Part shown: positions 10,033 through 63,420 of the stretch, one piece after another
How the letters are laid out: each line of letters starts with the position of its first letter
Numbering within the stretch: position 1 is the first letter of the stretch
Assembly: GCA_963920665.1 (NCBI GenBank)
Contig: OY987270.1
Span: forward strand, 13,604,019 to 13,668,018
Length of the DNA: 64,000 nucleotides
Reading direction: 5' to 3'
DNA from: Straminergon stramineum
Lineage: Eukaryota; Streptophyta; Bryopsida; Hypnales; Calliergonaceae
Notes under the pieces: model-generated
Seen by the model: the letters and a program-made list of their open reading frames with translations, nothing else
Told to the model about the DNA's origin: nothing
Databases searched by the model: none
Position numbers and translations under genes: made by a program

Positions 10033-10132
10033 ATTTGTCTTGTTCTTTATGTTGTGGGGAAAGAATGTGATTCAGCCACCAATCTCCAAGGGGCTTGCAG
10101 GTCCTTGTTGGATAACGGGACTCCTCTGTGGG

Positions 10133-23657: not shown

Positions 23658-25842
23658 ATGCCTCTTTTAATAATTTCACAACTCCTATGCAATTTTACAC
23701 TTAAAATTGATATGCACATTAATCTTTAAGCGTACAAAGTCTCCTCCAAAATTGGCAATTTCAGAAAAATCATTATAAAGTGTTATTTGGAAGAATATTT
23801 AGGAATTGATATACAAATTAAAGTTGTAGAGTATGAGTTTTAGATTCCATATTTATGGTTAGATTCACCAATTCTATCACCAAAATTTTTTTATAAATTT
23901 TGCAAGGGAAATTTCAAAATTCCTTCTAAATCCGATCACGAGCAAAATACTATTATTTTTTGAGTAAAATTTGTTGGTATGGATTTGAAATGAGGTTCTC
24001 TTGATATGGTGATTTAAAAAAAATTGTGTTCTTTGAATCTATAACCTCATTTTTGCAAATCTAGTTTTGATCTAGAGTCAATGTAATTTTGGCTTGGTCA
24101 AACACTTGACATACTTCCACATTTGTAATTTTAGAAAAACAAATGTATTCTAGTTATATTAAATCCAACCATTTGATAGGACAACCATTTGATAAAGTAT
24201 CTTTACAAATTAGGATGACTTTCATCCAAGTACTAATGAAAAGAAACGTCAATTACAATTTGTTCATCATCTAGAAATTGGACCAATCAAGGTGTTAAGG
24301 TATTAGTAAGCAAGCTCTTTAAACATCTTTATGGTTCAATTTGAAAAAAAAATTGCTTTATTGGAGATAACTACGAGCTCACACTCTTTTTTCATAGGAA
24401 AAACACACTTGAAAAGACTTAGGCACAAGGGTTAACTCACTAATTTAAATGGAATGAATAAAAGCTTTCCACAAAGACTTTAATATATTTAATGAAAATC
24501 AAATTTTGAAAGTTTTGTTTCAGTGCTTATATTTGTATTTGTTATCCAAGTTCAAACATTTTGTATTTAGTGTTATTCAACTATTGCTCTAAGTCACCAA
24601 TTGAAATAAAATTCATAGTCCTACAAAAATGCTATGATGTCTTATCTTGAAAAAAAATTCAGGAAAATCTCATCAAAACATGAGATCCTAGAAACTTGCC
24701 TGAACCTTCAACTGATCTGTGAAGGAGGACTAGCATCCTTTGGGGGATGTAAAATTAATTAAGTAAAGGCCAAAGAATATATGATGAATGATTCTAATTG
24801 GTATTTTATGACAAAGGACTAAACATTTACATTGTATGGTTGACGGATAAAGTTTCAATCTTGTCCTTCTAAAGTCATTGTTTATTTTCCATAAACTTGA
24901 GGCTTTGATAGTTTTAAGTTTGAAATAGATAATTCAAATATATTGTGAATAGTTACACCTTACTAAATGCACAATGATATGGAAGTTGCATTTGGATTGA
25001 AAAACAACATCTGATTTCATTAGGTTGAAGTGGCTATGAGGTTTGCTATTATGTGAGCCTAGAAGCGTGAGCCTATGAGCCTTGAATATTGTAGTCTAGA
25101 TTTTACTTTCTCCACAAAAACCGGGACTATTGAGTATAGGGATTCTTTATATCTAGGGAATGATCAAATAGTCTAACATGTTTTGGCTAATATCACTTGT
25201 ATTTTGAATTTTAAGTGGAAATTACACCAAGAATAACATATAACTAAAGAAATACCATCCCAATTATAATTCCACTCTTATTTTCCAAGAGTGATTTGGT
25301 GGCCAATCCTTAATAATGCTTTGGACTTATGAATGTGGTATTGGTCCTATCTTGTGTACTAGGTGTTATATTTTTAAAACAATTAGTCAAGGATACACAA
25401 TTGGTGTTGCACATGATCCAAAACTTCTAAATGCAATATATATATATATATATATATAGGTACACATCACACATCCATCTATAATTCATTAATTATTGGT
25501 GATATTCTTTTACCAAAACAATTTGTCACTGTCACTACTTAGCTAGCCTAATCACACAAATTTATCATGAGTTTGAAATTGTTCTCAGTCTTGTCTTCAA
25601 CAATTGGTCTCTCTCTACTAAGGGCATGAGTTTGTGTGTGCAAATCTTTAATTTTTCAAACAACAATGCCCACACTACTTCCTAACAATGATTCCTACCA
25701 CAATTTGTCTATAATGCAATCTCAAGGAAGTCAACAACAATTCAATGCCAAATGGATTATTCATTCCATGAATTCCAATTAACCCTATTCACCAACTCAC
25801 CATCTTTCTACTATTTGTCTATCACCTAGAATGTCTCTAGAG
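23658..25842. other. AT-rich spacer with a TA microsatellite
   Basis: Nothing coding is seen. A (TA)n run of about 23 bases lies at 25437-25458. Confidence 0.5.
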
Positions 25843-29812: not shown

Positions 29813-31120
29813 CTATGTCCTCTTTTGAATGCCCAAAGCTGTGGCCATGTCCTCGGGAATCACCCCACCACCGTCAACAACAGGAGCCTCTTCATCAACC
29901 ACTTGACCCTCCAAGCCTTCGATACGTAACACTTCGAGGAGGTCCTCGACCTCTTCATGAGACTGACGTAATAGCACATTGTGTAGAATGGCACAACACA
30001 AAATCACATCTGGTAAGAAGGTCACAGCAAGGTCAGATTTCTCGAGAAGCTCCCGAAATGATTGTTTCAAAATGCCAAAAGCATTTTCAACGATACAACG
30101 CCCCCTTCGCAATTTTTTGTTGAAAAGAGCCTTTGAGACAGATAGTTCACGTCGGCCTCTGTGTGGAACCATTAGCCAAGGAAGAAGTGGATATCCTGAA
30201 TCGCCAAGTAAGTAGGGAGTGAAACCGTCTACAGAACAAGCTACATCCATCAGATTGCCATATATGGCCAAAGTGTGTAGCGAGGAACGTCGAAGCATGC
30301 GACTATCATTAGTCGAACCTGGCATGCCGACATATAGGTCAAGAAATCTTTTCTCACTATCAACAACAGCTTGGCAATTTATACTATATCCTCCGCTCTT
30401 GAAATAAAAATAATCCGCAGCTCCAAATTTGGGCTTGGAGATACTGACTTGCATACCGTCAATGGCACCTACAACTCCTGGTAAAGCACACAAGTTAGTA
30501 AATTGAGTTTGAGTTTCACACATTTTCTCTCCAGTCGGCCAAGTAATTTCGTGCCGCATTGTCTCGTTGATGGCATACACTACTTCACGAAGCACTTTCG
30601 ACACTGTACTCTACTCGATAGCAAACATCTCACTACAAATGGTCAAATTTGCACCATGTGTCAATTTGAATAATGTGCAAGCGACACGCACAAGCACTAG
30701 AATAGCTAGTCTGTACTATGTGTTGTTTTTTTGCACATTTGGCCTGAGGAGTTCTGCTAGAGAGAAGACGGTAGACTTCGTCATTCTAAACATCGAAATC
30801 CATCGGCTGTTGTCATATTGTTCCAAAAGAAAACGGGAGAACCATGTCGTGGAACGAGGTTTAACCCAAAAACTGAGATCGTCATCGAAGACAATGAAAG
30901 AAGTGCACAATCTATAATTGTGTAGTGTACTTTTCATGAGCGACAACGAATCAATCATTGGGGCCTGCACAGACTGCACAATTGCGGATAGGGATTCTTC
31001 GCATTCCTCCTCCGATTCTGAGGATATGGAAATCTCCAACGTCTCATTAGCATGCAACAACAACGATAGCAACCAAATAGTGAAAGCCACCACGTTGGTT
31101 GCATTGCCAAATTGTTCCAT
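29813..31120 (-). pseudogene. PIF/Harbinger transposase (DDE_Tnp_4 type)
   Basis: One frame runs from ATG at 31120 to 29813, about 435 codons, broken by TAG at 30716-30718 and TAG at 30614-30616. The N-terminal part has an acidic run (SSESEEECEES) and a helical region before FRMTKSTVFSLAELLRP. The DDE core shows GVVGAIDGMQVSI (first Asp), VGMPGSTNDSRMLRRS (second Asp), LGDSGYPLLPWLM and RRGRCIVENAFGILK (Glu). It would cut and paste the element at TWA sites. Apart from the two stops the catalytic positions are kept, so the gene died recently or is suppressed. It converges on ORF1 with a 327-base gap. Confidence 0.9.
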
Positions 31121-34657: not shown

Positions 34658-34661
34658 TTTG

Positions 34662-34688
34662 AACACCGAATTAGGCATTTTTGCACTT
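34662..34688 (+). repeat. Left terminal inverted repeat of the giant element
   Basis: 27 bp, followed by GCACTTAGAAGGTGC, an imperfect palindrome that overlaps its inner end. It is preceded by TTTG. Confidence 0.65.
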
Positions 34689-34981
34689 AGAAGGTGCGAT
34701 ATTGCACTTGGCTCGTACGCCATATAAAATAGACAATTTCAAATATTAGGGGGGGGGGGGCATTTTTCCAAAAGTTTATTTACTATTTCATGGACAAGTT
34801 GTTCAAAGACAAATCATCATATTGCTCCAAAATTTAATTTTACTTCATAAAAACCTTGTACACTTTTCACTCCTCCAATCCTTGCTACTCATAATGCATA
34901 TTGTTTTGCACTTCACATTAAATTATATCTAAATGCCTACTACTAGAAGGTGAATAATAAAATACATAACATAATACTTTT

Positions 34982-37900
34982 CTAGTACATGTTCAAATCA
35001 TTTTGTAGACGTTCATCATCAAGGTCCTCCATTTGCATTGCCATGTACTCCACAAGATGCGGTTTAGCCTCAGTCAGAATGACCATTGTCTCCTCTGTTT
35101 GTATACCGTGCACAGTGATGCTGGAGCTCATTGCATGACCTGTTCTACCTCGATGAGGGGCATCCATCCATGAATATATAGTAGCTTCCTTCTCAATCCA
35201 AGCAAACCTCTCCCCAGACAGTTCCCATGTAGATTCCATGCAATTCGTGTACCTCACTCTATTACTACCTACTTCTTCTTCTGCTCCAGATCTCATTGAA
35301 GGCCAATACCACAAGACTTTCATCTTTGAGGCCCACCTCCCTTGACCAAATTCCAATACCTTTCTGATGTAAAAAGGTACTCCTCCTCTTACTTCCCTCA
35401 ACTCCATAGTAAGTGCCACAAACTGGCCTATGATAATGTCATTCTCTGGATTGAAAGGAGGAAAAGGATCTTCATTTGCATCTTGTATTGCTTCTGTTCT
35501 TGCATGATGACTTCCGACTCTATTCCTTCCTCCAATCACTCTTCGAGATACTTCTTGTGGGGGTCTATCTCGACGAGGTCCAAAATACCCCCTCCTCTCT
35601 GGATTAGGCATTGTTGCCATAATCAAGTCCACAGCTGCACTCCTTGTTGTGTTTCCATCAGCGTCAGTAGATGCACTTGAATTTATACCTTCTTCCACCA
35701 CATTTGGAATAACATTATCTTCCTCACTCTCGTTCAAGATATCGCTAGGCCAAAATGGTAAATCACGTGCCCCTTCTCTATTCTGTTGTAGAAAATCTTC
35801 TAGATAATCCTTGAAGTCGTTTGTTTTGTCCACAACTTCCATGTTCTTCATCCTGTTAGCACCTCGCAATATTAACTTCTGTTTGTAAGCAATGAACTCG
35901 TCCAATGCTTTCAATTCTCTCTGATCAGCTGCAAACACTTCTGCAAGATTTGGTTTCTCTGTTACACTTGGTAGTGAGTTCAAACACAAATGTCCCGTTG
36001 ATGGGCCCCACTCATCTGAGCTGAAATGTTTGTGTTGCACACGGACCAAACCATTTTCTACGTAAAACCTCATATGGTGTGGAAATGTTATGCCCGTCAA
36101 CTGATCCCCACCTCATAGCAAATGAGGTGTGATAAATGCCTTCCAGTCTCGAACATGTTCAAGCTTACGAGTAGTTACAAAAGCCTCGGTATATGATGTT
36201 CCTTTCTCCACCAATTGTAACATCTCCTCTAATATATCTATGTCTCTCCTTTTGAGGACGTTTGAAATTACACTGAATCTCTGATCAATGTCCTCGTGGG
36301 TGTGTCCAACGATTAAAAAACATAGATGCACCTCCTTGAAAAAACCAAGGCCAACTAGTGCGGCACACAAGCCAAACATGTAGATGTTCTTGTTCTCCCT
36401 TGTTGTGTTGTCACCTTGAATCCTCAACGTCGGTGGCAACGATCCTTTCCTACGCTTCACGTCACATATTACGTTCATAACTGATGTTATAACTTGATTG
36501 CTATCATGCTTGTGGTGAGCATCTATCCACACATCAGCATATAATCCAATCCCATGGACCAAGACACCACAAAGATGAGTCTTCACGAATCAAGATTCGA
36601 TGTTTTTCACAGATTGCCTCATCTTCGGTATCATAGTTGTATTTTGATCCATACCATCTACAATCAAACACATGAAAATGTCCGGAGTAATCATTGCAGA
36701 TCTCTTGAACAACCAGTAATCTCGCCTCTCCTCCATTTGAATTCGAATGTGCACAATGTATAATTCTTTGATCTTCACCTTCACGGCTACATTTGTTGTG
36801 GATTCCATTCCACATTTATACTCCCAACAATGGTAACACTTTGAGAATCTTGAAAATGGTGGAATCTGCACATGCGGGAACTCCTTCCGCCAAAGACGAC
36901 AAAATGAGCTCATGGACAATTCAGTCCCATCCACCAGTTTCTTCACTTCTTCGTTCACATACTGAAACACATCCAGCTTGCTTGTATTCATTGGCAACAA
37001 AATCAATGGTAATACCGCATTGTCCTTCTTCCTTCTTACCGATCGATGGGGTTGCTGACATCCTGCTTCATTTACAAAAACATCAAGACTTTCCCTAGCA
37101 GCTGACATTTTTGCACTTTCCCTCCCTTGACATGTGTTTCCGTGAATACCTGCCACTCTACCATATATGTTATGTGATGTCTTCAACTGCTTAAAACGCC
37201 TTTGTGAATAACCCAACGCTGCGGCAAAGCAAGCATTGCAAACCACTCTACCATTTAATTTTGTCACATACTTGCCTCTTGTTTGCCCCTCTATTCGAGT
37301 GTAGAAAGCATTGAGCATTTGCATTATCCATGTAGCCCTCGCTTCGTATTTCTGACCCCATGCCATGTATCGTTGATCCAAAATGTTTTTGGCATCGACA
37401 TCACGTAAACAATTGCGTTTACATGCTCCTCTCTGCTTCGCGCATAAAACACTTTCAAGAGTAACTTTCTCACTAGCTAATTCCCCTCGTTCTCTTGGAC
37501 TTCTCACCCTTGCCCTCCGATTTGTCATTGAATACCTCCTCTTCGGTGCATGTATAGGCATTCCTTGTACTCCTAGTGCATCATGAACACTAGCTTCAGA
37601 TTCCTTTGTCATAGGAGAACTTCTTGTAGATGTACTTCTTTCACCATGACTTGCTGGGGTTGCATTTGAAGCAGTAGGGCTCTCCTCCATGTCATTAAAA
37701 TCAAATTCTGGTGTTGCAATAGGAGGAAAGGAAAAATGTTGTTCTTCAATTCTAGTACTGCTTGTTGTTCTTATTTCCGAAGGACGTGCCCAACGGATTG
37801 AAGATCGACGCCATCGTATGACCTTATCCACACAATCAATGAGCAACTTCCCCACTACCTCACCAACCCATTCTCCTTCATGCAAGGCATGTGTAACACG

Positions 37901-38182
37901 AACTGCAATTTCGAATGGACGTAACTTGAGTTGATGAAGTTCATCCCCACATGCAAAGCTTGTATCCACCACACCAACTCCTACAACATTCCCATCCTTT
38001 CCAAGAAGTTGCACCATCCCGTTAGAAGCGTTTGAGACTACATTTGAAGGGGCGCGATCTTCTTCTTGGAAAAGTCTTCCTCGTACCACACGCGTCAATC
38101 GTTCACCTACGATTCTTCATTCAGTTGCAACCACCGAACTCCCAACGGCATTAAAGGCTACTAGACTACCAAATGCTTCCAT
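34982..38182 (-). pseudogene. Transposase-like gene of the giant element (DUF7869-like)
   Basis: A single minus-strand frame of about 1,067 codons from ATG at 38182 to TAG at 34982. It is interrupted by exactly three TGA codons (38117-38119, 36590-36592, 36113-36115), each one transition from CGA. The N-terminal third is basic and Ser/Thr-rich. A Cys-containing helical region follows (VCNACFAAALGYSQRRFKQL), then CYHCWEYKCG, which may bind zinc. The core has VDGMDQ (about 509), QGDNTTREN (about 589-597) and VGHTHEDIDQRFS (about 625-637). This D...D...E/D spacing suggests an RNase-H-fold nuclease. The layout matches proteins I remember as DUF7869, found in mosses, oomycetes and invertebrates. 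The C-terminus includes a BAH-like stretch. The transposase role is inferred. Confidence 0.7.
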
Positions 38183-38282
38183 TGCAACTGTCTTCAATCA
38201 ATCGTGCAGAACCGTTTGTCACACAGTGGTGCAATGTTGAACTACCCTCTCTTCACTCATGTGTCTTCGATCTGTCTCCATA

Positions 38283-39301
38283 CACTAGAAGAAAATCAGG
38301 AGTTTTGCGACTACAATTAGCAACTAGTTTTGTAGTTGCACCGGACATTTGCAACTGGGTGACAATTTGGAGCTCGCAATTGCAGTGGACAAGTTGCACC
38401 AGTTGCAATGTAGTTGCAAAAGTTGATAAGATTGGGTTTTTTTGGACAGCCTACATGGAACTTCATCGATGAACTCTTCTAACGTGGAAAGTATTTTTGT
38501 GCAACTCGTTTGCAACTAGTTTGCGACTTATTTGCAATTCATTTGCAACTAGTTTGCGACTCATTTACAACTTGTTTGCAACTCATTTGCAACTTGTTTG
38601 TAACTCATTTGCAACTTGTATGCAACTCATTTGCAACTTCACATTTATCTTTTTTTAGATGACCAAATTCAAATATTGATATTGAATAGATTTCACTAGT
38701 TTATGAAACTTTAAATTTCATAAGTTTTAAAATTTCTTATACTTTAAACATTTGTAGATATCTACAAGTTGTAGAAATCTACAAAGTCTATTATCAAACT
38801 TCATTACGTAAACATGATATAACTTACAATTCTTATGTGTTCAATCTAATGGTACTCTTGACAATTGATATGGGACAATTAATATAAAACTTGATTCTAT
38901 TTATTTTTTAGTCTTATTTTAGTTGCATTCTAGTTGTTCTCTAGTTGCATTTTAGTTGCAGTGTAGTTGCAGTCAAGTCAAATTCAGATTATATGCAACT
39001 GTAGTTTGACACACTAAACTATATAGAACGTAAAGTTATCCACGTCGACAATTGTGATGAATATTGGATGTAGAATAAATCACAATAATTCTGTTGTTAC
39101 ATTCTTGTAACCCAAAACTTCAATCTACGACTACTTTGCAACTACATGCAACTTGAAACTTCAATCTACAACTACTTTGCAACTACAGTAATGTATATAT
39201 CAAATTTGGTGCAAATATAGAGGGTTGTAGTTGTAGGGCAGTTGCATAGGACATATAGTTGCATTTCAGTTGGTTGTGGCGGACACAATTTTCTTCTAGT
39301 G
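38283..39301. mobile_element. CACTA non-autonomous element with subterminal repeats (1,019 bp)
   Basis: Begins CACTAGAAGAAAATCAGG and ends CAATTTTCTTCTAGTG, with ATA duplicated at 38280-38282 and 39302-39304. The interior is packed with variants of TTGCAACT and TAGTTGCA. A dense array of TTTGCAACT-type units, alternating with ACTAGTTTGCGAC, occupies about 38505-38640. Such subterminal motif arrays are where CACTA transposases bind. It has no transposase. It sits about 100 bases upstream of the start of the minus-strand DUF7869-like gene, within the giant element. Confidence 0.85.
38505..38640. repeat. TTTGCAACT subterminal repeat array
   Basis: Ten or more imperfect copies of a 9-11-base unit (TTTGCAACT, TTTGCGACT, TTTACAACT) in direct tandem, separated by CAT or TAG triplets. 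Inverted single copies (AGTTGCA) are scattered to about 39270. Confidence 0.8.
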
Positions 39302-39304
39302 ATA

Positions 39305-41323
39305 TACATACAGAAAAGTTAACATATGTCACACACACCTTGTAAGGATCTTCTAAAGAACCAAACAACATTGACACAAAGTAAACATCCTCATATACAT
39401 TAGGAGAAGACACCTCCATATTATTTTTTTCCTATGTCCTCTCTTCAAATACTATGTCGTTTTAATTGGTTACAACAAACTGAATCAAATCTAGCAAGTT
39501 ACTCTTAAGACTTCCTAAATAATCATTTCAATGTATTTTAACTTGGACAAATGTACATTGAATAACCCAAATGCAGACAAAAATTTCATTCATTCCCAAT
39601 CTATGTGTCCGACTCAAAGTCTAAATTCACCAAAAATTAAATGTTCTTCACTTTAGTATAAAGATAAATACATTTCATGAAATTTTTGAGTTCCTATTTA
39701 TTTCCTTGAAAATAAACATCTCTTTGGTTTTCTTAAGGAACATTGGTCTAAGTTTCTATACTTCAATTTTAATACATAATTGACATAATAATTTTTCAAA
39801 CTTGCACATTGTAATGTTCAACAACATGAGGAAAATGATATGTAAAGTTTCACAATATAAAATAAAATTTAATTGTAAACTATATATTCATTGAATAGAA
39901 ATCTTAAACTTCATATGAGGACTATAAACTAGAGATTTACTTTTTATAACTCATAAATTTCCTTAATTACCATTCTAAGATGTAAACTAAATTCTTCAAT
40001 ATGAAATACTTCAAGTTGAACATTTCATATGAAAAAGAATCGAACTTACAATGATATGCATTTCAAGAAATGCACTTCATAAACGTTGTTTTCAACAATT
40101 ATTGTTTGCCCCTAGAGAAGGAGGAAGACCTTGTACTCTATATACTCCAATTTTGTTACATTATTCTCTAAGTTTTCATACTAATGTACTATAATTACAT
40201 GTAGTTGATATAGCGTGACCACACTTTCTAAAATAGACTACTTCCAAGTTGTAAATAAAATAGTCAACTGTTAACTCTTGAAGCTACAAAATTATTTATC
40301 AATGTAGAACTTCCGATATCATAAAATATGTGAAAAGTTGAGGATAACAATAACAATCTTTGCTTCTAGGCCTTCTAGGTCTTTCAAGTGTAATGGTCCT
40401 CTACTCTACAAGCAAATACACTTTCATTGTGATCATAAGTTCTAAACTTTTTAAATGTACTCATACACTATAATAGAAGAGCTTAGTGCTTCTACATTAA
40501 ACTACCTTTGAAGTATCAAAATTTTGAACTCAATCTATGGAGATCCAAAAAATTTGAAAACCCTATGTTCCTAGTAATTCTATTCTGCACATTATAACAA
40601 TATTATATGAATTTTTTCTTAATAAGTTCTTCAAATATGCACTAAACTTTAAACAAAAAACAAAATAGCATACAATCAAACCTACTTATTCCATAAATGT
40701 AATTCGAAGTTCAAGTACTAAATGAAATTTCACAATTTTTATAACTATTGTGTTCTAAGTGAAGTAATACACAAGTTTAAGAAAATTAGGATACCATATG
40801 TCCTCCAAAGAACAATTCTTTGTGCATGCATCCGCAGATTATAACACTACATAAAATAAGGTTAACTAGTAAGTGTTCAAAATGTCTTGTCCAGTTTGCT
40901 AATTCCATTAATACCAACATAAAATAGTTTGTACTACAATACTTTATTCAATATTCAAACATGAGTGGTACAATTAGAATTAAAAATTCCATCTGTATGA
41001 TGTCATAAACCATTTATTACACATATATTTTACTAAGAACTCTACAAGGTTAATTTTAGAATGTCTGCCGAATTTCCTTTTCAACAAAATATTATCATTC
41101 TTTAACTTCAATATGTGGGAGTGACTTTAACATGAGGTTGTTTGGAAGCTCTATAGGATTTCCTTCATAGAATATCATATTTAGAAAATATGTTTCTAAC
41201 TAAACACCCACAAATTTGGCTTTGGTAGGAGGTGCTCACAATCTTTTGTATTCATGCTTTTTTGAAATAATTAACTAAGCTTTGAATATCAACACTAAAT
41301 GCAAGCCTTACATATGAGATTAA
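39305..41323. other. AT-rich interior of the giant element
   Basis: No ORF above background and no recognised repeat. Confidence 0.5.
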
Positions 41324-41795
41324 GGGCCTCTTCACACTATGGCCGTCCAAGTCGAGAGGCTGTGGGATTGAGTGGCCAAACTTTGGTGAGAGTCCAAGGA
41401 AATGAGCAATAAATAGGTCAAAAAAACTAGGAATTGGAGCCTTCGGCCGGCCATAGTGTGAAGCCTCCAAAGACCAAAGTCCAAAGTCCAAGCCCAAAGT
41501 CCAAACCTATTTCATTTTTTCGACTTCTAATCCATCCAATTTCTGAAATTCTCAATATATTGTCTCCCATGTGACAATTTTTTCAAGCAAAAGGTTAAAA
41601 AACATGAGAAAGGAGTCAAAAATGGCCTTGGAAAAATAATTACAGCACATGCTCTCATCATTAAACAAGGAATATGAAGGATATAAATGGAAGAAAAAGG
41701 TGGCATTAAACATTGAAGGGAAGTAGGTTCATAGAATGCAAAGACTCCCCATTGTAATTGTGGAGACTAGGGTTCAAACCCCAATGGGGACACAA
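41324..41795. mobile_element. Harbinger-like MITE copy, truncated or variant, nested in the giant element
   Basis: Begins GGGCCTCTTCACACTATGGC after TAA. The next roughly 470 bases match the complement of 54304-54775 with only scattered differences. An internal inverted copy of the same terminus (GGCCATAGTGTGAAGCCTC) lies near 41452-41472. The far end is followed by an A-rich (A7-8C)n stretch to about 41832 rather than the left terminus seen in the other copy. Confidence 0.6.
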
Positions 41796-41799
41796 ACAA

Positions 41800-44210
41800 A
41801 AAAACAAAAAAAACAAAAAAAACAAAAAAACGCAAAAGGAATGGAAATAGAAGCACCTCATATCTGCTTAAATCATCTCCGTTGATTATCTGAAACCTAA
41901 GTCTTCGACGCGCGCATGTGCTTCCTTGTCTAGCCGCAAGAGTTTCTCCTCTTTGCAAGAATCTTATCAGCTGATCTGCTACATCACTGTTTTCGATAGG
42001 AAGTACAAACTAACGTGGAGGTGAAGCTGCCCAATGCCAGAGCAACGTCATCCAGCAACCGCAAGCAGGAGGTGCGTGCACAAACTTGCTTCTTCAATTC
42101 CGAAACACTAAATCGTACTTGCTCCAACCCGCATCTAAATTCCCGTACGTGCTAAAGAATGCGCGATTAGCTCATCATTTGTAATTGAATCACAGGAAGC
42201 GCCTCGATTGTTTAGGGTCATACGGCTTGGGACGATCAGCAACTTCCGTCACCGCTTGGCGAGGTGAAGGTAACCCTAATCAAACTTCATCTTCTTACTT
42301 GCGTGACTCTGAGTCTTGAAAAATTTGTATATGTCACCATCTCCTACCAAAGAGGTGAAATTGTAGAAAAAAGTAGGACCAACGCCAATGAATAGTGACC
42401 CTCCGCGCGCGCAGAGGGTCACTGTTCATTGGCGCTGGTCCTACTCTTCACCGCTGCAGTCGTGAGGAAGATTTGGAAACAAACCCCCTCAAGTGAACAG
42501 TGACCCTCTACACGCGCGGAGGGTCAGTGTTCTAATTCCTCTAGAGTGCACTGTTCATTGCTGGAATTGATTGTACAGGTGGCCCTTGGTGATGCTATTT
42601 TCTCGTGCAATGTGGAAGACGGTGCTACTCAATTTCTGGAGAAAGCGCGAAAGTGCGGCAAAGTAGGTAAGTGTGCTTACCTCGCAATTGGAAATCAATT
42701 ATTACTGAGTCGTGGAGGAGAATCTCTGCGCTTCCTTTTCCACTTTATCCGGTCCGCTGAATTTGCTTTGCGCTCTGCGCGGTCCTCTGTTTGGTCACCG
42801 CAATCTGTCCTCTGCCTTCGATATATTCTGTTGTCTGACACTGTGATATTACTAATGCGCCAGGGTGTCCTCGCAGAGTCCAACGAATTTGAAGTTATTG
42901 TTGCGTGGCAGGGTGTCCTTGCGAAGTCAGATGGAATTCAAATCAATCGTCTGCAACCAGCTGTTCCTGCTTCAATTTCGCAATTGCTACTTCAATTTCA
43001 TAGTTGCCGTAAGTTCTCCTGGATTTGCTGAAGTTGGTTTGTGTTCGGGGAACTGGTGGAACGACTAACAATAGGAATGAATTGAACTTTGTCAAGCCTG
43101 GTTTCTTTCTCTACTGTTGAAAATTGGAATTCTCTGCGCACTGCTGCCACTCTCTTGAATCTCAGTTTGCGGAATTAGCGACATCGTGGAAGGTCAGATT
43201 TGCCCTTCTTGTACTGTTAGGAAACAGATTCATACAATTTAATGTTACTTCAATAGGACATTAGGCTAGCAAATCAGAAGATCAAACGTCACTACCTAGT
43301 AGAAACTTCATTTGAACCTACTAGTAACCAGCTTCAACTTTGTAATTGTTGAAGCACTTGTCTCAAACCTGCAAGCAACTAATGACAACATAGAATTTGG
43401 CTGAGCGCTAGTGATGACGAGATATAGTTCGGCAGAGATGCATTACCTTCACCGTTTTGTATGTTTTCCGCCTTCATAGTTCGTGTGAGAAGTATTGTTC
43501 TAGACTAGCGAGAGAATCTGCGTCCAATCCAGTACATCAATTTCGACCTGTATGAGAAACTAGAAGAGAAGAAATTGACAAGTAATGCAAACAAGAAATA
43601 CATAGACCAACGCCTTATTGGAAGATCTGGTTTGTATCCACGGAGCTAGTGATGCGATGAATGTCTGCAATCTGTGATTTTTTGTTCTGGACTTCGTTTC
43701 AGCTGCTACCAACTTCCAACGACTAAATTTGCTCTTCTACGGGAATTGGTCGATGACCTCATGTTCTTTCTGCGTCCTCTGTCATTCTAGGAAAACCCTG
43801 TTGAAACAAACACAAGAACTTGACGAATTGATTCAGTGGATCATCATGGGCTCACGGAGGCTCACATGGACCAAAAAAAGAGTTAGAATTGACCTCGGGT
43901 GAAAATCGTCTCTAAGCGCTGTCTCTGCCAGATCATTTTCTCCCGCACGTTCAAGGTCCTCCAAAATTACACGGTCCTGAAGTGGTTCACTGCTGGAAGT
44001 CGTGAATTAATGTCTCTGTAATCCCAAAGAAAATAAAGCACAACATAGTTCTTGTACTGTAGAACCTGTCTTTTCACTTTAGACCTACAAATTGTTCTTT
44101 AAAATTTTATAAAGCCCTAATCCTAAGCTTCAGTAAATGACCACCTCGAAAAGTGTGCAAAGTTTTAATGTTTCCTAGTATTTTAAGATAGTACTTCCTG
44201 ATTTGCAGCC
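41800..44210. other. GC-richer segment of the giant element with exon-like pieces
   Basis: Composition shifts from strongly AT-rich to balanced between about 41850 and 43900. It includes several GT/AG-bounded open stretches and the 161-codon ORF at 42546-43031 (VALGDAIFSCNVEDGATQFLEKARKC is its most protein-like part; start and family unrecognised). Two CG-rich hairpins sit at 42373-42532. This may be captured host sequence or the promoter and leader of the rightward gene, whose first ATG follows an acceptor-like TTTTCATGTGTAG at 46475-46489. Confidence 0.35.
42373..42444. repeat. 72-bp hairpin with 31-bp arms
   Basis: Arms 42373-42403 and 42414-42444 begin GTAGGACCA and end CTGGTCCTAC, with two mismatches. 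The loop is the alternating CGCGCGCGCA. A shorter related hairpin (GAACAGTGACCCTC against GAGGGTCAGTGTTC) follows at 42495-42532 with a CACGCGCG-containing loop. Confidence 0.85.
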
Positions 44211-46494
44211 TTAAATACAAGGACCAAGACCATGGCAAACAAACCCAATACTCTCATAATAGAAGCAGCTCTTGTGAAGTTCATTCGCTCAAGGAAAAAC
44301 TGAAAGAAACATTGAAATCATTACAGATGTCCAAAACTTATAATACACTCCAATTATGATTGTACAATGGAGAAAAAAATCTAATAAAATTATTCTAGTC
44401 ACTGGGTCTCACCTATGTTAAAAGTAGTCTTTAAAATGAACAATGTTGAGGTCAAAAAAGTATGGAATCCTGAGCACCACTGTAAACATGTAGTACTAGA
44501 ATATGGCAAAATTTTAACACACTACATTCATATGAAAATAATGAAGTCCAAAAATAAAATGTAAATCAATGAAATTGGTGTTCTAATATTAATTATATGC
44601 AGAAAAAACCCATTGGGATAGTTTTCAACTCCATTAATATAGTATGAAATCTCTTCATTTATTTCTTACATGAAGTAGGTTCAATACAACTAATGTATTC
44701 CTACATATGAGTCAAGTGGATTCATCTTGGTGTATTTGTAATTTGCAAATAGGTAATTATGTAGTCAATTAGTATTAACTTGTAGATCACAATATGACCG
44801 AAGTTCATTGCTTGAGCACTTGTAGGAGTAGGAAGAATTATATTACAAAGCTTCAGTAGTTGTAATAGTGAAGAGAAGATATCATATCCTAAAACTTTTG
44901 ACAATACTAGTGTGCACTGAAACATATTATGAAACGACTAATACCTTCTTAGGTGTGTTGTCTATATTGATTTAGGGTTGTTATGGAACGTGCTATTTGA
45001 GTAGTTCATATACATGAAAGTCAAAATTTGTAGAACGTGTATTGCTTGTCTACAAAGTGTTACATAGTGAGGACTTGGGGACCATTCTTGAAGAATATCT
45101 TATATTTTTTATTGAATTTTCATTTTGCTTTTGTATTCTATAAATTTCAATTAGAATTTTGGTTTTCAGTGAGTGTGATGTGAACTTCATTATGTGTACA
45201 TCAAATTCAATTAATTACACATTGATGACATTCAAATTTTTGGTCTTCTTTTTCAATTTAAATTAATTACATAAGAAGTACATTTGAAGCTTTGGCCTTA
45301 TGTTTTAATTTCAAATTTATGTGTTGTAGTTTTATTTGAATTTCTTGTTTTCTACTTTAGTTCATCATGATATTGCATTATATTTTCTGAAATTCTAATC
45401 TTATTTTGTTATAAGTTAATTATAATTTTAGTTTTCGTCCTTGTATTATATACATTTTTTGAATGCATAATGATTTAAAATTCTTTAATTTTGAAACTAC
45501 TTAGTTCTCTTGTATTATAGTTTAATTTCAGATTCTCCTACTATACTTCTGTTTGAAATTCTTCTAAGATTATTTGAAGATAATTGTTTGAATAAAAACT
45601 CTTTGTATTACTTTAATTTATTCCAATCTATTTTATTGTATTTTATATTTGTTGTCTTGAAATTTCTTTATCAATTCTTTTCTTTATTATAGTTATCTTT
45701 TTCAACATTGAACAAAATAAAATGATCAAAAACATTCCATATTACTTTTGTACTATATAAGACTTAGTCAATTTGAATTTATTATAGCTGAACATCCATA
45801 ACTAAATGTTGTATTTATAAGATGAGGTCCTTGTTTAGAAGTGCACACCACGAGAGTTTCAAAGGAAAGTTCCACAGATAATGCATTCCATGACTTAATA
45901 CTTGTCATGTACAAACATACCATAGTTATTGGCCTCTATGACGTACGTGTCTTTTCCTTGTCATTTCAATAAGATGCCATTCAAGAATTTCATAGCTTTG
46001 TCGAAGTGGTTTTCATGCACTTTGATGCAATCCATAGTATTTTGTGATGAAAGTTTGGGGACGGAATTTGTTGATATTGAAAAAGAAAGGGTGCCTCTGT
46101 GTTTATTGAATTACAAAACTTTCTATTAAGTTGTTGTTGTTGTTGAAGATGATGACCTCATTTACATTTAACGTTATTGTATTTTCACTATAGATGTCCA
46201 CATATTATTCATGTTCGTTAATATTGAAGATTTTGGATGCTTTTATTCATAGAAGTGAGGTGTACAAGTTCCAAAGTGACGTTCATGCATTTCTTACAAA
46301 CTTTACTATTAAGTCTTGAAGACTAGGAAAACAAAAAAATTCCATATTAGGTTCTATATGGTAGAAGTTGTTTTGGTTAAACCACTAACTACGAACGATC
46401 TTCAGTAGTATATTAGTAATTGTTGTACTGTTTACCAAATTTGAATATTCTTTCAATTATTGAATTCCACTTTTATTTTCATGTGTAGAACATC
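44211..46494. other. AT-rich interior of the giant element, upstream of the long frame
   Basis: No clear gene. On the minus strand a stretch near 44213-44300 reads FLERMNFTRAASIMRVLGLF followed by a hydrophobic run, after an acceptor-like TTTCAG. It might be an exon, but nothing joins to it. Confidence 0.35.
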
Positions 46495-49400
46495 ATGGCA
46501 CCGAAGGTCCATTCGAAGTGGTTGGAGCATGGATGGTGGATAGTAGGGAATGGTGCGGAGAAGCCTTCATTATGGCTCACTGACTTCCCAATTGAAGAAG
46601 GGCGATATTGGAGTGCTCTGGGAACCTCATATGGAGTCATTGAGAGCGTCGCAGGCACTGTTGATGAAGGACTCACTGTGGCTGTTACCAATAGTGAAAT
46701 GGTCTTTGAAAAGTACAAATTGAGGAAGCGATTGATGATGGCACCAATTCCAGCAGAGCTTGTTCTTGTTCTGTCTCCTATGCATGGTTTGAAGACATTG
46801 GTGAAATTCTGAAAAACTATGTCCGATGACTTGAAGATTCGAAGAGAAGAATCTGTTAAGAAATTCAAGGACTCAACCCCTCAACAATTGTTTGAAGCAC
46901 GTAAACGGTATGTGTAGATTCGAAGCTATGAGGAGCTTCAAAGAAATGACCCTACTGCAGCCCAACAACAGCCTGCTCCTACAGAACCTGAGGATACAAA
47001 TGATTTATATCGGCTATATGCAGCTCCAGTGAAAGAAAATTGGATTCCAGTGTCTCAAAGGAACAAGAAGCGTGTTGCTGTCGAAGAAGAAGAAGGTGAC
47101 ACTCATTCAGATGAAAGGGATGTTTCTGAAAGGCAAAGAACACATCGACAACGTCTTGTTTCTGCGACAACAAGTGTTGAAGTTCAGCCTTTGAGAGAGA
47201 ATGAATGTGGAAGGCATGAAGAGGCATTATTACAAGGCAATGCACCAATTATTCCTTCATCAGTGCAGGATGAGCTTGGAGAGGAATCTATTGAACCACA
47301 ACAGAGTGGTTTTGAAGCAAATGAAGACAATGAACAACAGGGTGTTACAGGAATTGTAATTGAAAGTGACACTACAATTCCAAGAACAATCACAGAAATT
47401 GGATCAGGATCAAGAGTTCGAAGAATTGGCTCAGCAATCCAAATAAGCAGGGCAGGAGTTATGATGTCTAATACAAATGTTGGAAGGTCTAGTACCAGCA
47501 GAGGACAAGGTGCTAATAGAGGACGAGGTGCTAATAGAGGACGAAGTACTGGTAGAGGACGAGGTCGAGTTGTAGCCCGAGACCATTCTGCATTGCAAGA
47601 CATTGAAGAGGAACATCAAAGGCTTCACATAGTGGAAATGGGGTCTCAAGAAGAGCAAAGCCTTCGCACTCGTAGTGCAGTACAAAGGCATCATCAAAGA
47701 ATAATGATAGGAGGACCTCCTCCTACAGCCAATGATGGGGTTCATGTAGTGGATGATGATGATTCTGCAGAAGAAGAGCCTAAGCAAGCACGTACTAGTG
47801 TATTGTTACGAAGTGTTACAAAACCACCAGTGGTTTTTCCTACAGAGACTGAGTACAAGGCGAGATATATTTGGGGGCAGGGTACATTTTTCAATGCAAA
47901 CATTGATAGTATCCGTGATGTATTAAATGTAGAGACAAACCACAGAACGCTAATGGACTGGCGAGTGACTGAGATGTACCAACGTTTGAAGGGATTTAAA
48001 GCTGAAGGAATTAGTGCAATTACACTTCATCCAATTGCATATCATTATGAGAATGTCAATGATGAAGGACAACCAGAGAAAGTGGAGATTTCTTTTAGTC
48101 ATGAAGGTGCTGCACGTGAATTCGAGGTTGCATTTTTGACACACTACTGTGCAGATCCATCTACCCCAAGGAGTATGGTGCAGACTCAGTGGTTGGAGAA
48201 TAATATCGTATAGGAGCCAGTGGATGGGCAATATATTGTAGGTGCTTGTAAACGAGCCCAATACGATTATCAAGAGGGCAAAATCAATGAGGAGGAGTAC
48301 TTGAAGCAATTTGCAAGAAGGAAAGCAAAGTTTGTGGTCTACAACAACCCACAGTTCTACATAGAAGCATCGGTTAGAATTAATGCAAGGGAGTTTGACC
48401 GGACGTTTTTCACCACGTACTATGAAAATCTAATCAAGCTGCGTGACATTTGGAAATCTTGTGGAAGTCCTAGTGTTGCTGCACGAGTTGATGATGCATA
48501 TCGAGCGAAGGCATTGACAATGGCAGTGAGTGCATTGCACTAGAGTCAAGACTTACCACAACGTATGTCATTGGGGGAGTTGTCCAAAAAAATGATTGAC
48601 TACACAAGGCACATTTGGAATGAAGATGAAGAGGCATATCAAGCAATATTGTAGGTGTGCAAAGACTATGAGGAAGGGAAGTTGTTTTTTAGCAAGAAGT
48701 CAGAGAAGTGGAAGAAAATGGCAAGAGAGCACAATTTGGATGTCACAGTGGATGGGAATCCTAAGAGGAAGAGGATGGAGAAGACCTGGTGGAGACCTTT
48801 GAGTAGAGTCTCTCAAGAGACCTATGTACGTGTGGTGAAGCAAATGGCAGCAAAGTCAGTGGTTGATGGGAGACGACCTTCTCAACAGTACTATTTCAAT
48901 AATGCAACCTCTCCGAATCCCCCTAAAGGTACTGTAGCTTATGCAGTGGATCGTGTACAGCGAAAGGATGCAATGAGAAATCAAATTCGATTTTTGATGG
49001 TCAAGGCGAAGGATGAGAATCCATTGTCAATGGATGATTTCTTTGCAATAGATGCAAGCACGTATGGATCTGATGGAGGAAGGCAATTCACATTGATGGG
49101 GAAGACGTTAGATATTAATTCAAAGACTTTGTGGTGTTCTCCAACTATAAAGACAGTTCAATCATTGAGCAATATTGATCATTTGATTCCAGCGTTTGTT
49201 AGGCAACACTTTACCGATATCAGAGCTGGTCGCAGAGGTTATATAGGCTATAATCGGGATGTCGAGGATGTTTCCAATGCACGATGGGACTGGCAAGTTG
49301 CACTTTCAGTAGTCCATCACCAAGGAAGAGAAGAATCGGTGCATGTGAGGTGTAGAGCAGGGTTCTTTGAGGATGATTACATTGAATTGGGAAAATCGTG

Positions 49401-51099
49401 TTTATGGATTTTTGATTGCAGACGTGGTGGTTCAGAAGGGTTGGATAGAGAATGGTCAAGTGAAGATTACAACAAAGTGATGCATCAAATTCAGCATTAG
49501 ATGTCTTCAATTCTACGGTGGACCGCCATATTTCTTTTTCCACCGGGTGTGTACTTTGACGAAGCAATGCAATCGAGGATGTCTTTGCCAGAAAGTAGTC
49601 ATTCATTGAAGGGTTCATGGATATTTAAAAGACAAACTGTTTCATCATATGTGCATGATCTACGTCATGGTGAGCAATTGCAGCGAGTAGTACAAGCAGT
49701 GGGGGACATTGCCATCATTATGCAATATCCGCATAAAAGTGGGCCTATGGAGAACCTTCCTCACAGTATAGAGGAGTTAGATGTGGTATTTCAAGGCATT
49801 TGGAGTGGAGAAGTGATGCCACGAGTTGAAGACAAGCTGGAGAGGACACCAATGGAGTTGAAGAGGATGGTGCAGATGTATCTACCTAAGAATTGGAGGT
49901 TGGTGACATTGGGCATTACAATGGCTATTCCGGGGATTTTAGAGAATGGTTTTCTGGGCAATGAAATTATCATCATGGAAGGCGACACAACACGCATAAA
50001 TTTTGTATACAATACATTGCAATTGATGTATGGGGATAAAATGGTGGTGGTGAATAGTGCAAACACTTCAGCTGAACAGAGAACCTCGCCAGTGTTGAGT
50101 ATGGGAGAGCAATCGCCTAATTATGATCCTTCTGAAGCAGAAACTAGTGTACCACATGGTAGGCTTGAGAGGGTACTGCGTTCATCGAGTGATTCATCAG
50201 ATGTAGAAGAAATAGTTGAAAGGACTAAAAGAGAGAAGCGAAAGGGAAAAGAGACCACAATTGATTTTGGAGCTTCATCATCAAGTGGAAATGGTAGTGA
50301 CTCTAAGCAGACGAACTCTGATGATTTACCTAGTGGTGGCCAAAGTTTGGGATCTGTTGACACTGATGCTGAAAGTGACGCTCATGGAGACCAAGAAGAC
50401 TTGCAGAAAATGGAAGAAGACCCTGATTATGCTCCAACATTATAGAATAATAATATGGAGAATGCAGCAGCAACAGATGTTGAAGTTCATAGAGGAGAAA
50501 TTGAAGGTTTATCAGCAGCAACAACAGATGTTGAAATTCATGGAGGAGAAATGGAAGGTTTACCGGCAGCAACAACAGATGTTGAAGTTAATGTAGAAGA
50601 AAATGAAGGTTTACCGGCAGCAACAACATATGTTGAAGTTAATGTGGAAGAAAATGAAGGTTTACCGGCAACAACAGCAGATGTTGAAGTTCATGTGAGA
50701 GAGCTTGAAGGTACACCAGTAGAAACGGAATCCATATCTGCCTTGTCAGCATTCACATCTCTGGACTCTATGAGTTTGACTTTGAAGGAGGATGGATATT
50801 TCTACAATAGGGAAAATGTACGCTTTGTTAGGACAGGAAATGAAGGGCATTATGTTTTTCATCGGGATTTTTCTATTTTGGAAGAACCTACCCAATCACA
50901 GTCTTTTTCAGAGGGGGTGTCAACACCCATTGTGAACGTTCTGGTAGATAGGGCATTAGAGTATGGCTCTCCACCTTCACTCAGTCCTAGAGGTGGTCCA
51001 AGTATAGTTGAAGAAACTGAAGTAGTTGGTGGAGGGGAAGCAGAAGACTTGACACAGTCATCCGCACAAGTATTGGAAACACCAGATGACACAGTGTAG
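46495..51099 (+). pseudogene. Giant element long frame, about 1,535 codons, unknown protein
   Basis: One frame runs from ATG 46495 to TAG 51097. It is broken by a TGA (46810) and six TAGs (46915, 48211, 48541, 48652, 49498, 50443), with no frameshift. Codon composition and protein texture stay coherent across every stop, so this was one gene. From the N-terminus it has a compact domain (WLEHGWWIVGNG, then LTDFPIEEGRYWSALG). A charged linker and an RG-rich patch follow at 47490-47570 (RGQGANRGRGANRGRSTGRG). Next is a long globular region (YIWGQGTFF; TWWRPLSRVSQETYVRVVKQM; YNRDVEDVSNARWDWQVALS; WIFDCRRGG) and then an acidic disordered tail with 17-residue repeats. I recognise no family. Being inside the element and opposite the transposase, it could be an accessory DNA- or RNA-binding factor. 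Confidence 0.65.
50464..50718 (+). repeat. Five 51-bp coding repeats in the long frame
   Basis: Each unit encodes 17 residues of the form EGLPAATTDVEVNVEEN. Five units, the outer two more diverged, sit in the acidic C-terminal tail. The period of 51 keeps the frame. Confidence 0.85.
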
Positions 51100-51615
51100 T
51101 CTTCAAGTATTTAATAGTGGTGCATACATCGATAGTATGGTAGTATACGATGTGTGGAAGTATAAAAGTTCTTAGTTGATTTGCAAAATGTTTGTAGACA
51201 TTGGAGTGTTCTTTTTTGGAGTTGTGTGGATTTTAAATCTAATATGAGAAGATATGGACATTTCTTCGACTTCATTTAGATTTTCTAAATAAATTCTTCA
51301 ATGACTATAGTGTTTTTTTACTTTTCAAGTGATATTGACATAAAAAGAGTATGATATCTATAGAATTGAAATATATAGTGTGTGGTGAATAAAATGAAGA
51401 AACAACAAAAGTAATCAAAATGAATGAAGTGTAAATTTGTACTTGTTGTATTTAGAAGTGTTGAAAAGTGCATCCCTATGTAAAAATACCATGTATAATT
51501 GAAGCAAAACACAAAAGAACCTGAGAGAGTTGTTTTTGAAACAAGGGGGGGGGGTCAATTTTTGTTAAAACAATATTTTAGTGAATAGTATTCCATATGG
51601 TCATTGCACTTGGCC

Positions 51616-51642
51616 AAGTGCAAAAATGTCTAATTCGGTGTT
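51616..51642 (-). repeat. Right terminal inverted repeat of the giant element
   Basis: The complement of the left terminus with one G/A difference. Its inner end overlaps the perfect palindrome GCACTTGGCCAAGTGC and it is followed by TTTG. Confidence 0.65.
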
Positions 51643-51646
51643 TTTG

Positions 51647-54108: not shown

Positions 54109-54775
54109 GGGCCACTTCACACTACAGCACAAGTTCGAGAGTCCTTCGATTTCAACCAATGAGATTGCAGAAACCCAAGAGTTCGGCCTCTTGAGCCTTC
54201 ACACAAGGAGGCACAATCCAAAGTCCGTCACCCACTTGTCTGCCTACATGGCAACCAAATGTCTACATGGCGACGGACTCTCGATTAGAGTTTATTTGTT
54301 TATTTGTGTCCCCATTGGGGTTTGAACCCTAGTCTCCACCATTACCATGGGGAGTCTTTTCATTCTATGAACCTACTTCCCTTCAATGTTTAATGCCACC
54401 TTTTTCTTCCATTTATATCCTTTATATTCCTTGTTTAATGATGAGAGCATGTGCTGTAATTATTTTTCCAAGGCCATTTTTGACTCCTTTCTCATGTTTT
54501 TTAACCTTTTGCTTGAAAAAATTGTCACATGGGTGAAAATATATTGAAAATTTCAGAAATTGGATGGATTAGAAGTCAAAAAAATGGAATAGGTTTGGAC
54601 TTTGGGCTTGGACTTTGGACTTTGGCCTTTGGAGGCTTCACACTATGGCCGGCCGAAGGCTCCAATTCCTAGTTTTTTTGGTCTATTTATTGCTCATTTC
54701 CTTGGACTCTCACCAAAGTTTGGCCACTCAATCCCACGGCCTCTCGACTTGGACGGCCATAGTGTGAAGAGGCCC
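54109..54775. mobile_element. Harbinger-like MITE, full copy (667 bp)
   Basis: Left end GGGCCACTTCACACTACAGC, right end complement GGGCCTCTTCACACTATGGC: about 17 of 20 positions match. Flanks are TTA on the left and TGA on the right, so the duplication is imperfect. The right 470 bases are an inverted near-copy of 41324-41795. It contains the internal terminus-like AGTGTGAAGCCTCC (complement) about 130 bases from the right end. Confidence 0.65.
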
Positions 54776-54980
54776 TGACACTAGAATGGTGTAAGTGCCC
54801 GATGACAGTCACTAATAACTCCATGACCATCTCCCAAGAGAAGATTATTGCCAGAAATCAGCCTAATGTAGACATGTAGTCCTAATCCCATTCATTAGAA
54901 AAAATTTGCCATGGGTTGATATAAGACTCTAATGGGTGATTTTCTAGATGACTTCATTTATTTAGGCAGTTTGCCTGTTA

Positions 54981-62764: not shown

Positions 62765-63420
62765 GAGTTCCACGTCCATTATACAACTCCAAACTAAGAG
62801 TGTGATATGTCCCTGGAAAGCTAACAAAAATTTCTACAACCTCTTCGAAATTCACTCAAAACTAAGATACTGTCCGACTTTTATGGTCGGTTAAAGTTCA
62901 CCTTTTCCAACTCAAAGGCAGCTCACCTATACTTCACTCCCAAGTCCATAACTTTCACATACTACCTCCAAATCAAGAAAATAAACCCATTTTGAAAAGT
63001 TAACATGAATATCTACAATCTCCCCAATTTTAACTCAAATCTAAAGTACTGTCCACATTTCATAGCCTTTCAAAGTTCACTCTCTTGAAAACCCGAAAGT
63101 ATCTTTTCACCCTTTCACTCTTAAGTCCATAACTTTCACATACTACCTCCAAATCAAAAAAATAAACCCATTTTGAAAAGATAAAAGAAGTATCTACAAC
63201 CTCCCTTAGAGTAACTCAAAACTAAGATACTTTCTACCTTTTATAGTCTATCAAAGCTCACTCTCTTGAAAGTTTGAGGCAACTCCACAACACTTCACTC
63301 CCAAACTCATAACTTACACATACTAACTCCAAACTTAATGAATGATAGCTTTTTGGAAATAAAAAAACAAGATACACAAGCTCTCAAAATTTCATTACCA
63401 AACTCTCTATGTACAATGTG
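62765..63420. repeat. 181-bp tandem repeat, three to four diverged units
   Basis: The motif CCATAACTTTCACATACTAC or its variants recurs near 62947, 63128 and 63308, a period of about 181. Each is followed by CTCCAAAT and later by a CTCTCTTGAAA-like segment. The units resemble the interior of TTAA element 2 (about 15700-16200). The sequence after them (GAGGTAAAAAAAAAGAGTTC near 63733) resembles 16540-16565 there. Confidence 0.65.

What the first reader, a model, noticed from the sequence alone, without database searches (positions are those of the whole stretch)
34662..51642. Candidate giant (17 kb) terminal-inverted-repeat transposon with two long genes
Seen: 27-bp inverted termini with one mismatch, 17 kb apart and facing outward, TTTG outside both, and matching subterminal structure. 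Between them lie a DUF7869-like frame with D, D and E/D motifs reading left and a 1,535-codon orphan frame reading right. Established: cut-and-paste plant transposons are usually under 12 kb, and a 4-bp TTTG duplication with ACACCG ends matches no superfamily I can name with confidence. Inference: this is one element of an undescribed or poorly described group whose transposase carries the DUF7869-like domain.
Basis: partly seen in the sequence, partly recalled or inferred. Interest (0 to 1): 0.92.

Follow-up and report, generated by a model that had tools for sequence, protein, structure and literature searches.

The report
Giant two-gene Sola-like DNA transposon
This is a 17-kb mobile DNA element, present in many copies in its host genome and framed by 4-base duplications, that likely moves by cut-and-paste using a protein of a family with no assigned function (DUF7869) predicted to be its transposase, and it carries a second large gene whose job is unknown.

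Summary
Window 34662-51642 is one 16,981-bp element with 27-bp inverted ends (one mismatch) between copies of TTTG. Of 40 scored left-end hits in the host assembly, 26 pair with a correctly oriented right end of their own; 23 of these span 7.3-19.3 kb. All 10 copies read whole carry perfect 4-bp target-site duplications, 8 different words. Seven of the 10 carry both genes, all decayed; their stops differ from copy to copy (24 of 29 positions in gene 1 and 47 of 54 in gene 2 occur in one copy only). Between older lineages dN/dS is about 0.20 (gene 1) and 0.34-0.38 (gene 2). Gene 1 (1,066 codons, Pfam DUF7869) has near-invariant D, D and D residues and a predicted RNase H fold. One copy holds a nested 21.5-kb element with a distant DUF7869 gene, AACA ends and a 4-bp duplication.

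The 'undescribed group' inference is weaker. Published Sola elements have 4-bp duplications, DDD transposases and sizes sometimes above 15 kb, occur in moss, and one 21.5-kb brown-algal Sola1 has an opposite-strand accessory gene. I file this as probably Sola-type; comparison with Sola transposase sequences could not be run, and the host's name is not known.

The parts
34658..34661 (.). left target-site duplication TTTG
34662..34688 (+). left 27-bp terminal inverted repeat (AACACCGAATTAGGCATTTTTGCACTT)
   Evidence: 40 scored matches of the left 301 bp in the assembly, itself included
34682..34913 (+). left subterminal TGCACTT motifs (34682, 34703, 34907)
34982..38182 (-). gene 1, predicted transposase, 1,066 codons plus stop; 3 in-frame stops in this copy
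   Evidence: homologues of 1,044-1,070 aa at 98-100% coverage
36014..36595 (-). DUF7869 domain (PF25273), position transferred from the copy on C4 (residues 475-668 of the 1,012-aa query there)
36284..36658 (-). predicted catalytic acidic residues: D 36656-36658, D 36410-36412, D 36284-36286 or 36290-36292 (HTHEDID)
   Evidence: D 23 of 23, 22 of 23, 20 of 21 and 21 of 21 rows; RNase H topology in the model
38282..39301 (.). about 1 kb present in the window copy and not in B-E, CACTA-type ends with ATA duplication; an insertion, not part of the element proper (limits approximate)
46495..51099 (+). gene 2, orphan accessory protein, 1,535 codons with the stop; 7 in-frame stops in this copy; RG-rich repeats 47500-47565, 51-bp tandem repeats 50464-50718
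   Evidence: three database homologues
51616..51642 (-). right 27-bp terminal inverted repeat
51643..51646 (.). right target-site duplication TTTG

Best explanation
This is a 16,981-bp DNA transposon with 27-bp inverted ends and 4-bp target-site duplications, one of at least 26 paired copies in its host genome, likely moved by cut-and-paste by its DUF7869 protein, which is predicted to be a DDD transposase, and probably a giant member of the Sola superfamily. Shown: the ends, their pairing, the duplications, shared gene content, past selection on both genes, and the same end type and duplication length on a distant DUF7869 element. Predicted: the transposase would bind the TIR and the repeated TGCACTT motifs at both ends, pair the ends, cut, and insert with a 4-bp stagger that host repair turns into the duplication. 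Inferred: gene 2 encodes an accessory protein that the element needs or profits from, probably a DNA- or chromatin-binding partner. The three shorter copies read (9.6-12.1 kb), which have lost most of gene 1, are presumably mobilised in trans. Every copy read whole is now decayed, so present activity is not shown.
Confidence: 0.72

Rival explanations
1. DUF7869 elements form a separate, undescribed superfamily that resembles Sola only in duplication length and size; mechanism otherwise as above.
For: No Sola sequence test was possible; no held paper contains 'DUF7869'; AACA ends are shared by two families only 22-25% alike in their transposases, which suggests an old, coherent group.
Against: 4-bp duplication, DDD residues, size above 15 kb and an opposite-strand accessory gene are all reported for Sola or Sola1.
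Confidence: 0.2
2. Gene 2 is captured host cargo (a passenger) rather than a second transposon gene.
For: Gene 2 evolves faster than gene 1 (dN/dS 0.34-0.38 against 0.20); giant elements can carry unrelated genes (PMC12477816 passages), and the nested element here carries a NIF phosphatase domain, 8.4e-17.
Against: It sits in the same place and orientation in all 7 copies read that keep gene 1, across two lineages about 80-85% alike; it has been under purifying selection; its homologues are orphans too, and P0147 shares the start MAPK-H--W--HGWWI. No host family was recognised.
Confidence: 0.2
3. A Ginger, IS3EU or IS481EU element (integrase-type transposases that can also give 4-bp duplications).
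For: 4-bp duplications are listed for Ginger1, Ginger2 and some IS481EU; the predicted core resembles integrases.
Against: Ends are AACACC..GGTGTT, not TG..CA; TIR 27 bp, not 40-270 bp (Ginger values); Pfam finds no rve domain in gene 1 at E up to 1.
Confidence: 0.03
4. Two unrelated short elements that happen to flank 17 kb of host DNA.
For: 27-bp repeats alone can arise from dispersed short elements.
Against: Left and right ends differ beyond the TIR and pair in 26 of 40 hits, spans 7.3 kb or more; no opposed left-left or right-right pair under 30 kb among the scored hits; 4-bp duplications join the two ends.
Confidence: 0.01

Closest known systems
Sola superfamily, Sola1 of the moss Physcomitrella (PMC9033089 table, PMC10741241 passages)
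   Same: 4-bp duplications, DDD-type transposase, variable TIRs, some elements above 15 kb
   Different: Whether Sola1 transposases carry DUF7869, and the end sequences of moss Sola1, could not be checked; a second 1,535-codon gene is not mentioned in the passages seen
Sola1-1_Ec32, 21.5 kb, Ectocarpus (PMC12477816 passages)
   Same: giant size; long accessory gene on the strand opposite the transposase
   Different: its accessory protein is 1,104 aa with ParB-like and DNA methyltransferase domains; gene 2 here and its homologues give no significant Pfam or NCBIfam match
CACTA / EnSpm elements of plants
   Same: large, with short TIRs; two genes in the classical maize element (recalled)
   Different: 3-bp duplications and CACTA/G ends; here 4 bp and AACACC
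Nested DUF7869 element in copy E (G000:C4:26278832-26300368)
   Same: DUF7869 gene (6.1e-42), AACA ends, 4-bp duplication, frames on both strands
   Different: transposase 22-25% identical, 21.5 kb, TIR of about 13 bp, different opposite-strand frames including a NIF phosphatase domain

Membership tests
Sola superfamily | 4-bp target-site duplications | tested here: met
   10 of 10 whole copies; 5 of 7 further copies with good ends
Sola superfamily | DDD transposase | tested here: met
   as conserved residues only: D 23 of 23, D 22 of 23, D 20-21 of 21 rows; RNase H core predicted, catalysis not tested
Sola superfamily | TIRs of 11-1124 bp, size 2 kb to above 15 kb | tested here: met
   27-bp TIR, 16,981 bp
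Sola superfamily | sequence similarity to Sola1/2/3 transposases | not testable with these tools
   no Repbase or Dfam library on hand; Bao 2009 not held
CACTA / EnSpm | 3-bp duplications and CACTA/G ends | tested here: not met
   4 bp and AACACC ends
Ginger | 5'-TG..CA-3' ends, TIR 40-270 bp | tested here: not met
   AA..TT ends, 27-bp TIR
piggyBac | CC..GG ends with 4-bp duplications | tested here: not met
   ends AACACC..GGTGTT
Mutator / MULE | 7-12-bp duplications in plants | tested here: not met
   4 bp
PIF/Harbinger and relatives | DDE_Tnp_4-type transposase | tested here: inconclusive
   Pfam lists only DUF7869 for gene 1 at E up to 1, while DDE_Tnp_4 is found elsewhere in the window; a remote relation is not excluded
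RNase H-fold transposases/integrases as a fold class | solved relatives by fold | tested here: inconclusive

The most novel reading that the evidence does not exclude
DUF7869 marks a superfamily of giant two-gene transposons of its own, with AACA ends and 4-bp duplications, in which the transposase carries a C-terminal BAH-like chromatin-reading module and the opposite-strand gene encodes a degenerate ParB/methyltransferase-type partner that binds the element's own DNA and helps it find or keep chromatin sites.
Probability: 0.12. Interest if true: 0.8.

Novelty: new variant of a known kind. Interest (0 to 1): 0.5.

Why it matters
It ties a domain of unknown function to a predicted job: DUF7869 proteins are the likely transposases of giant elements with 4-bp duplications, so genes annotated with that domain should be treated as possible transposon genes. 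It also gives a family in a chromosome-scale assembly in which an orphan second gene has been kept under selection beside a transposase in at least two lineages, which makes the role of second genes in giant transposons directly testable. The recent copies (2.4-3.3% apart from the window copy) let boundaries and derivatives be read cleanly.

Tried and rejected
Gene 2 as a ParB-methyltransferase protein: read by eye from a DGQHI motif in P0146-P0148 and an INGQHS motif in the nested element. Tests did not support it: no Pfam match for gene 2 pieces or homologues beyond weak chance-level rows, no NCBIfam match, no credible PDB-sequence match, two weak PHROGs of unknown function for P0146 and one for P0148, profile comparison with the nested frame at probability 0.7% and 2.1%. 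Local alignments against shuffled sequence gave 26, 8 and 69 of 500 shuffles at or above the observed score for P0146, P0147 and P0148, so only P0147 is suggestive. ParB and methyltransferase motif knowledge is recalled.

Relatives in viral contigs and prokaryote genomes: none confirmed with alignment A1 (23 proteins) as the query. Captured genes in the shorter copies: only short frames (largest 147-194 aa in F, I and J); some are remnants of genes 1 and 2 by eye; no family search was run on them. Host identity and a genome-wide DUF7869 count: not obtained.
Full report
Observation. Beyond the 27 bp the ends carry TGCACTT motifs (21 and 42 on the left; 21 and, inverted, 32 on the right). Of the ten copies read whole, nine keep the left pair (G lacks it) and all ten keep the right pair. 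The minus-strand frame is one gene of 1,066 codons (34982-38182) broken by three stops in this copy; the plus-strand frame is one gene of 1,535 codons with its stop (46495-51099), broken by seven.

One element, many copies. The assembly is 326 Mb. The tool scored 40 of 64 candidates for the left 301 bp and 40 of 75 for the right 300 bp, so counts are lower bounds. Pairing gives 27 left ends with a right end in the correct orientation within 70 kb; I drop one (C6:13833336) that reuses another copy's right end, leaving 26 of 40. Twenty-three span 7.3-19.3 kb and three span 37-51 kb. Thirteen left ends and 14 right ends found no partner within the scored lists. No opposed left-left or right-right pair under 30 kb occurs among the scored hits.

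Duplications. Ten copies were read whole (A window; B C4:2971526; C C1:40959696; D C1:28149299; E C4:26265685; F C8:8771827; G C1:9996534; H C9:20066273; I C6:13887752; J C5:19175345). All ten have perfect 4-bp duplications, eight different words. Seventeen more left ends were read; 13 also had the right end read. Seven of these have both termini within four mismatches of the TIR: five perfect, one 3 of 4 (C1:33309642), one none (C6:7136692). The other six have a damaged end and no duplication; four of them, on C7, appear to share one flank and so look like one insertion copied with its surroundings. No 500-bp flank of one whole copy matches a flank of another. For copy J, a related repeat in the window (23710-23925) runs 17 bp across the junction at 84% identity, a weak paralogous empty site.

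Genes. Copies B-E differ from A by 2.4-3.3% (transitions exceed transversions 3 to 5 fold); G and H form an older lineage. Both genes are present in A, B, C, D, E, G and H, with gene 2 of E split by a nested element; F, I and J (9.6-12.1 kb) keep only remnants of gene 1 next to the left end. The seven copies have 3, 2, 1, 6, 5, 11 and 7 in-frame stops in gene 1, G and H with frameshifts as well. Over the seven copies gene 1 has 29 stop positions, 24 seen in one copy only, and gene 2 has 54, 47 in one copy only; each position is a sense codon in at least one other copy. The recurrent ones mostly cut across lineages, the commonest being codon 106 of gene 2 in A, C, G and H. Two homologues, P0147 and P0148, read through the corresponding place, so I take that stop as recurrent decay and not as a gene boundary; this is an inference. 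dN/dS is 0.207 and 0.201 for gene 1 (B against G and H) and 0.375 and 0.337 for gene 2 (A against G and H); among the recent copies it is 0.4-1.1 for gene 1 (B against A, C, D, E) and 0.68-0.71 for gene 2 (A against B-E). So both were selected as proteins while the lineages were active and drift after insertion.

A second family. Copy E is 38.2 kb because a 21,537-bp element lies inside its gene 2. That insert has AACATCATATTCA at both ends, a GGTT duplication and a DUF7869 gene at 6.1e-42; the undisturbed sequence in copy A is the empty site. Its transposase is only 22-25% identical to gene 1. End type and duplication length therefore go with the DUF7869 protein across a wide distance, on the evidence of two families. 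It also carries a NIF-type phosphatase domain (8.4e-17) on the opposite strand.

Place among known elements. From passages of PMC10741241: Sola has a DDD transposase, 4-bp duplications, 2-9 kb with some above 15 kb, TIRs of 11-1124 bp, and occurs in Physcomitrella. PMC9033089 lists Physcomitrella Sola1. PMC6786969 reports more Sola in the fern Azolla than in Salvinia. PMC12477816 describes a 21.5-kb Sola1 in Ectocarpus with an opposite-strand gene of 1,104 aa with ParB-like and methyltransferase domains, and giant elements thought to be mobilised in trans. PMC3627910 gives AT-rich 4-bp duplications for Sola2 families of amoebae. PMC4455052 says that Repbase keeps Sola1-3 as one superfamily. 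PMC10045372 gives duplication lengths of other superfamilies. PMC10294476 gives curated bivalve Sola1 elements a mean of 5,445 bp, far shorter than this one. I saw passages only of all these papers. The founding Sola paper is not held, so the sequence test is missing. The search 'DUF7869' found no held paper, so the link from this domain to any transposon is not in that library under that name; it may be in print elsewhere.

Mechanism. Best supported: cut-and-paste by the gene-1 protein with a 4-bp staggered insertion. Shown: ends, pairing, duplications, coding history. Predicted: fold and catalytic triad. Inferred: binding of the ends through TGCACTT, trans-mobilisation of the shorter copies, an accessory role for gene 2. 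Gene 2 has three long homologues (44, 47 and 40% identical) and no recognised domain; its RG-rich stretch and short tandem repeats suggest, without proof, nucleic-acid binding.

Verdict. A real, well-bounded giant transposon family; the domain-to-transposase link is the useful new point; membership in Sola is probable but not tested by sequence.

Noticed in passing
window 38282-39301: About 1 kb present in the window copy and not in B-E, with CACTAGAAGAAAA / TTTTCTTCTAGTG ends and an ATA duplication: a CACTA-type insert upstream of gene 1.
   Followed up: partly
window 41323-41808 and 54291-54776: 486-nt inverted pair, 97% alike, one inside and one outside the element: probably a separate short mobile element.
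   Followed up: no
window element near 45983: Copies B-E share about 493 bp at this point that the window copy lacks, with no overlap at the junction.
   Followed up: no
G000:C4:26278832-26300368 (L046-L048): Nested 21.5-kb element with a distant DUF7869 gene and, on the other strand, a NIF phosphatase domain and an INGQHS-bearing frame.
   Followed up: partly
G000:C7:21.05-21.36 Mb: Four copies with apparently the same flanks and the same damaged right end, suggesting tandem or segmental duplication of one insertion.
   Followed up: no
window 46810-46812 (gene 2 codon 106): The same codon is a stop in 4 of 7 copies from both lineages, more recurrent than any other stop; reason not tested.
   Followed up: partly
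window 8590-11140: Copia-type retrotransposon pieces (RVT_2 1.4e-69, rve 1.3e-18).
   Followed up: no
window 29816-30604: DDE_Tnp_4 / Plant_tran transposase frame (1.2e-30).
   Followed up: no
window 62814-63271: Direct repeats of about 180-bp spacing, 73-85% alike, with a diverged copy near 15907-16064.
   Followed up: no
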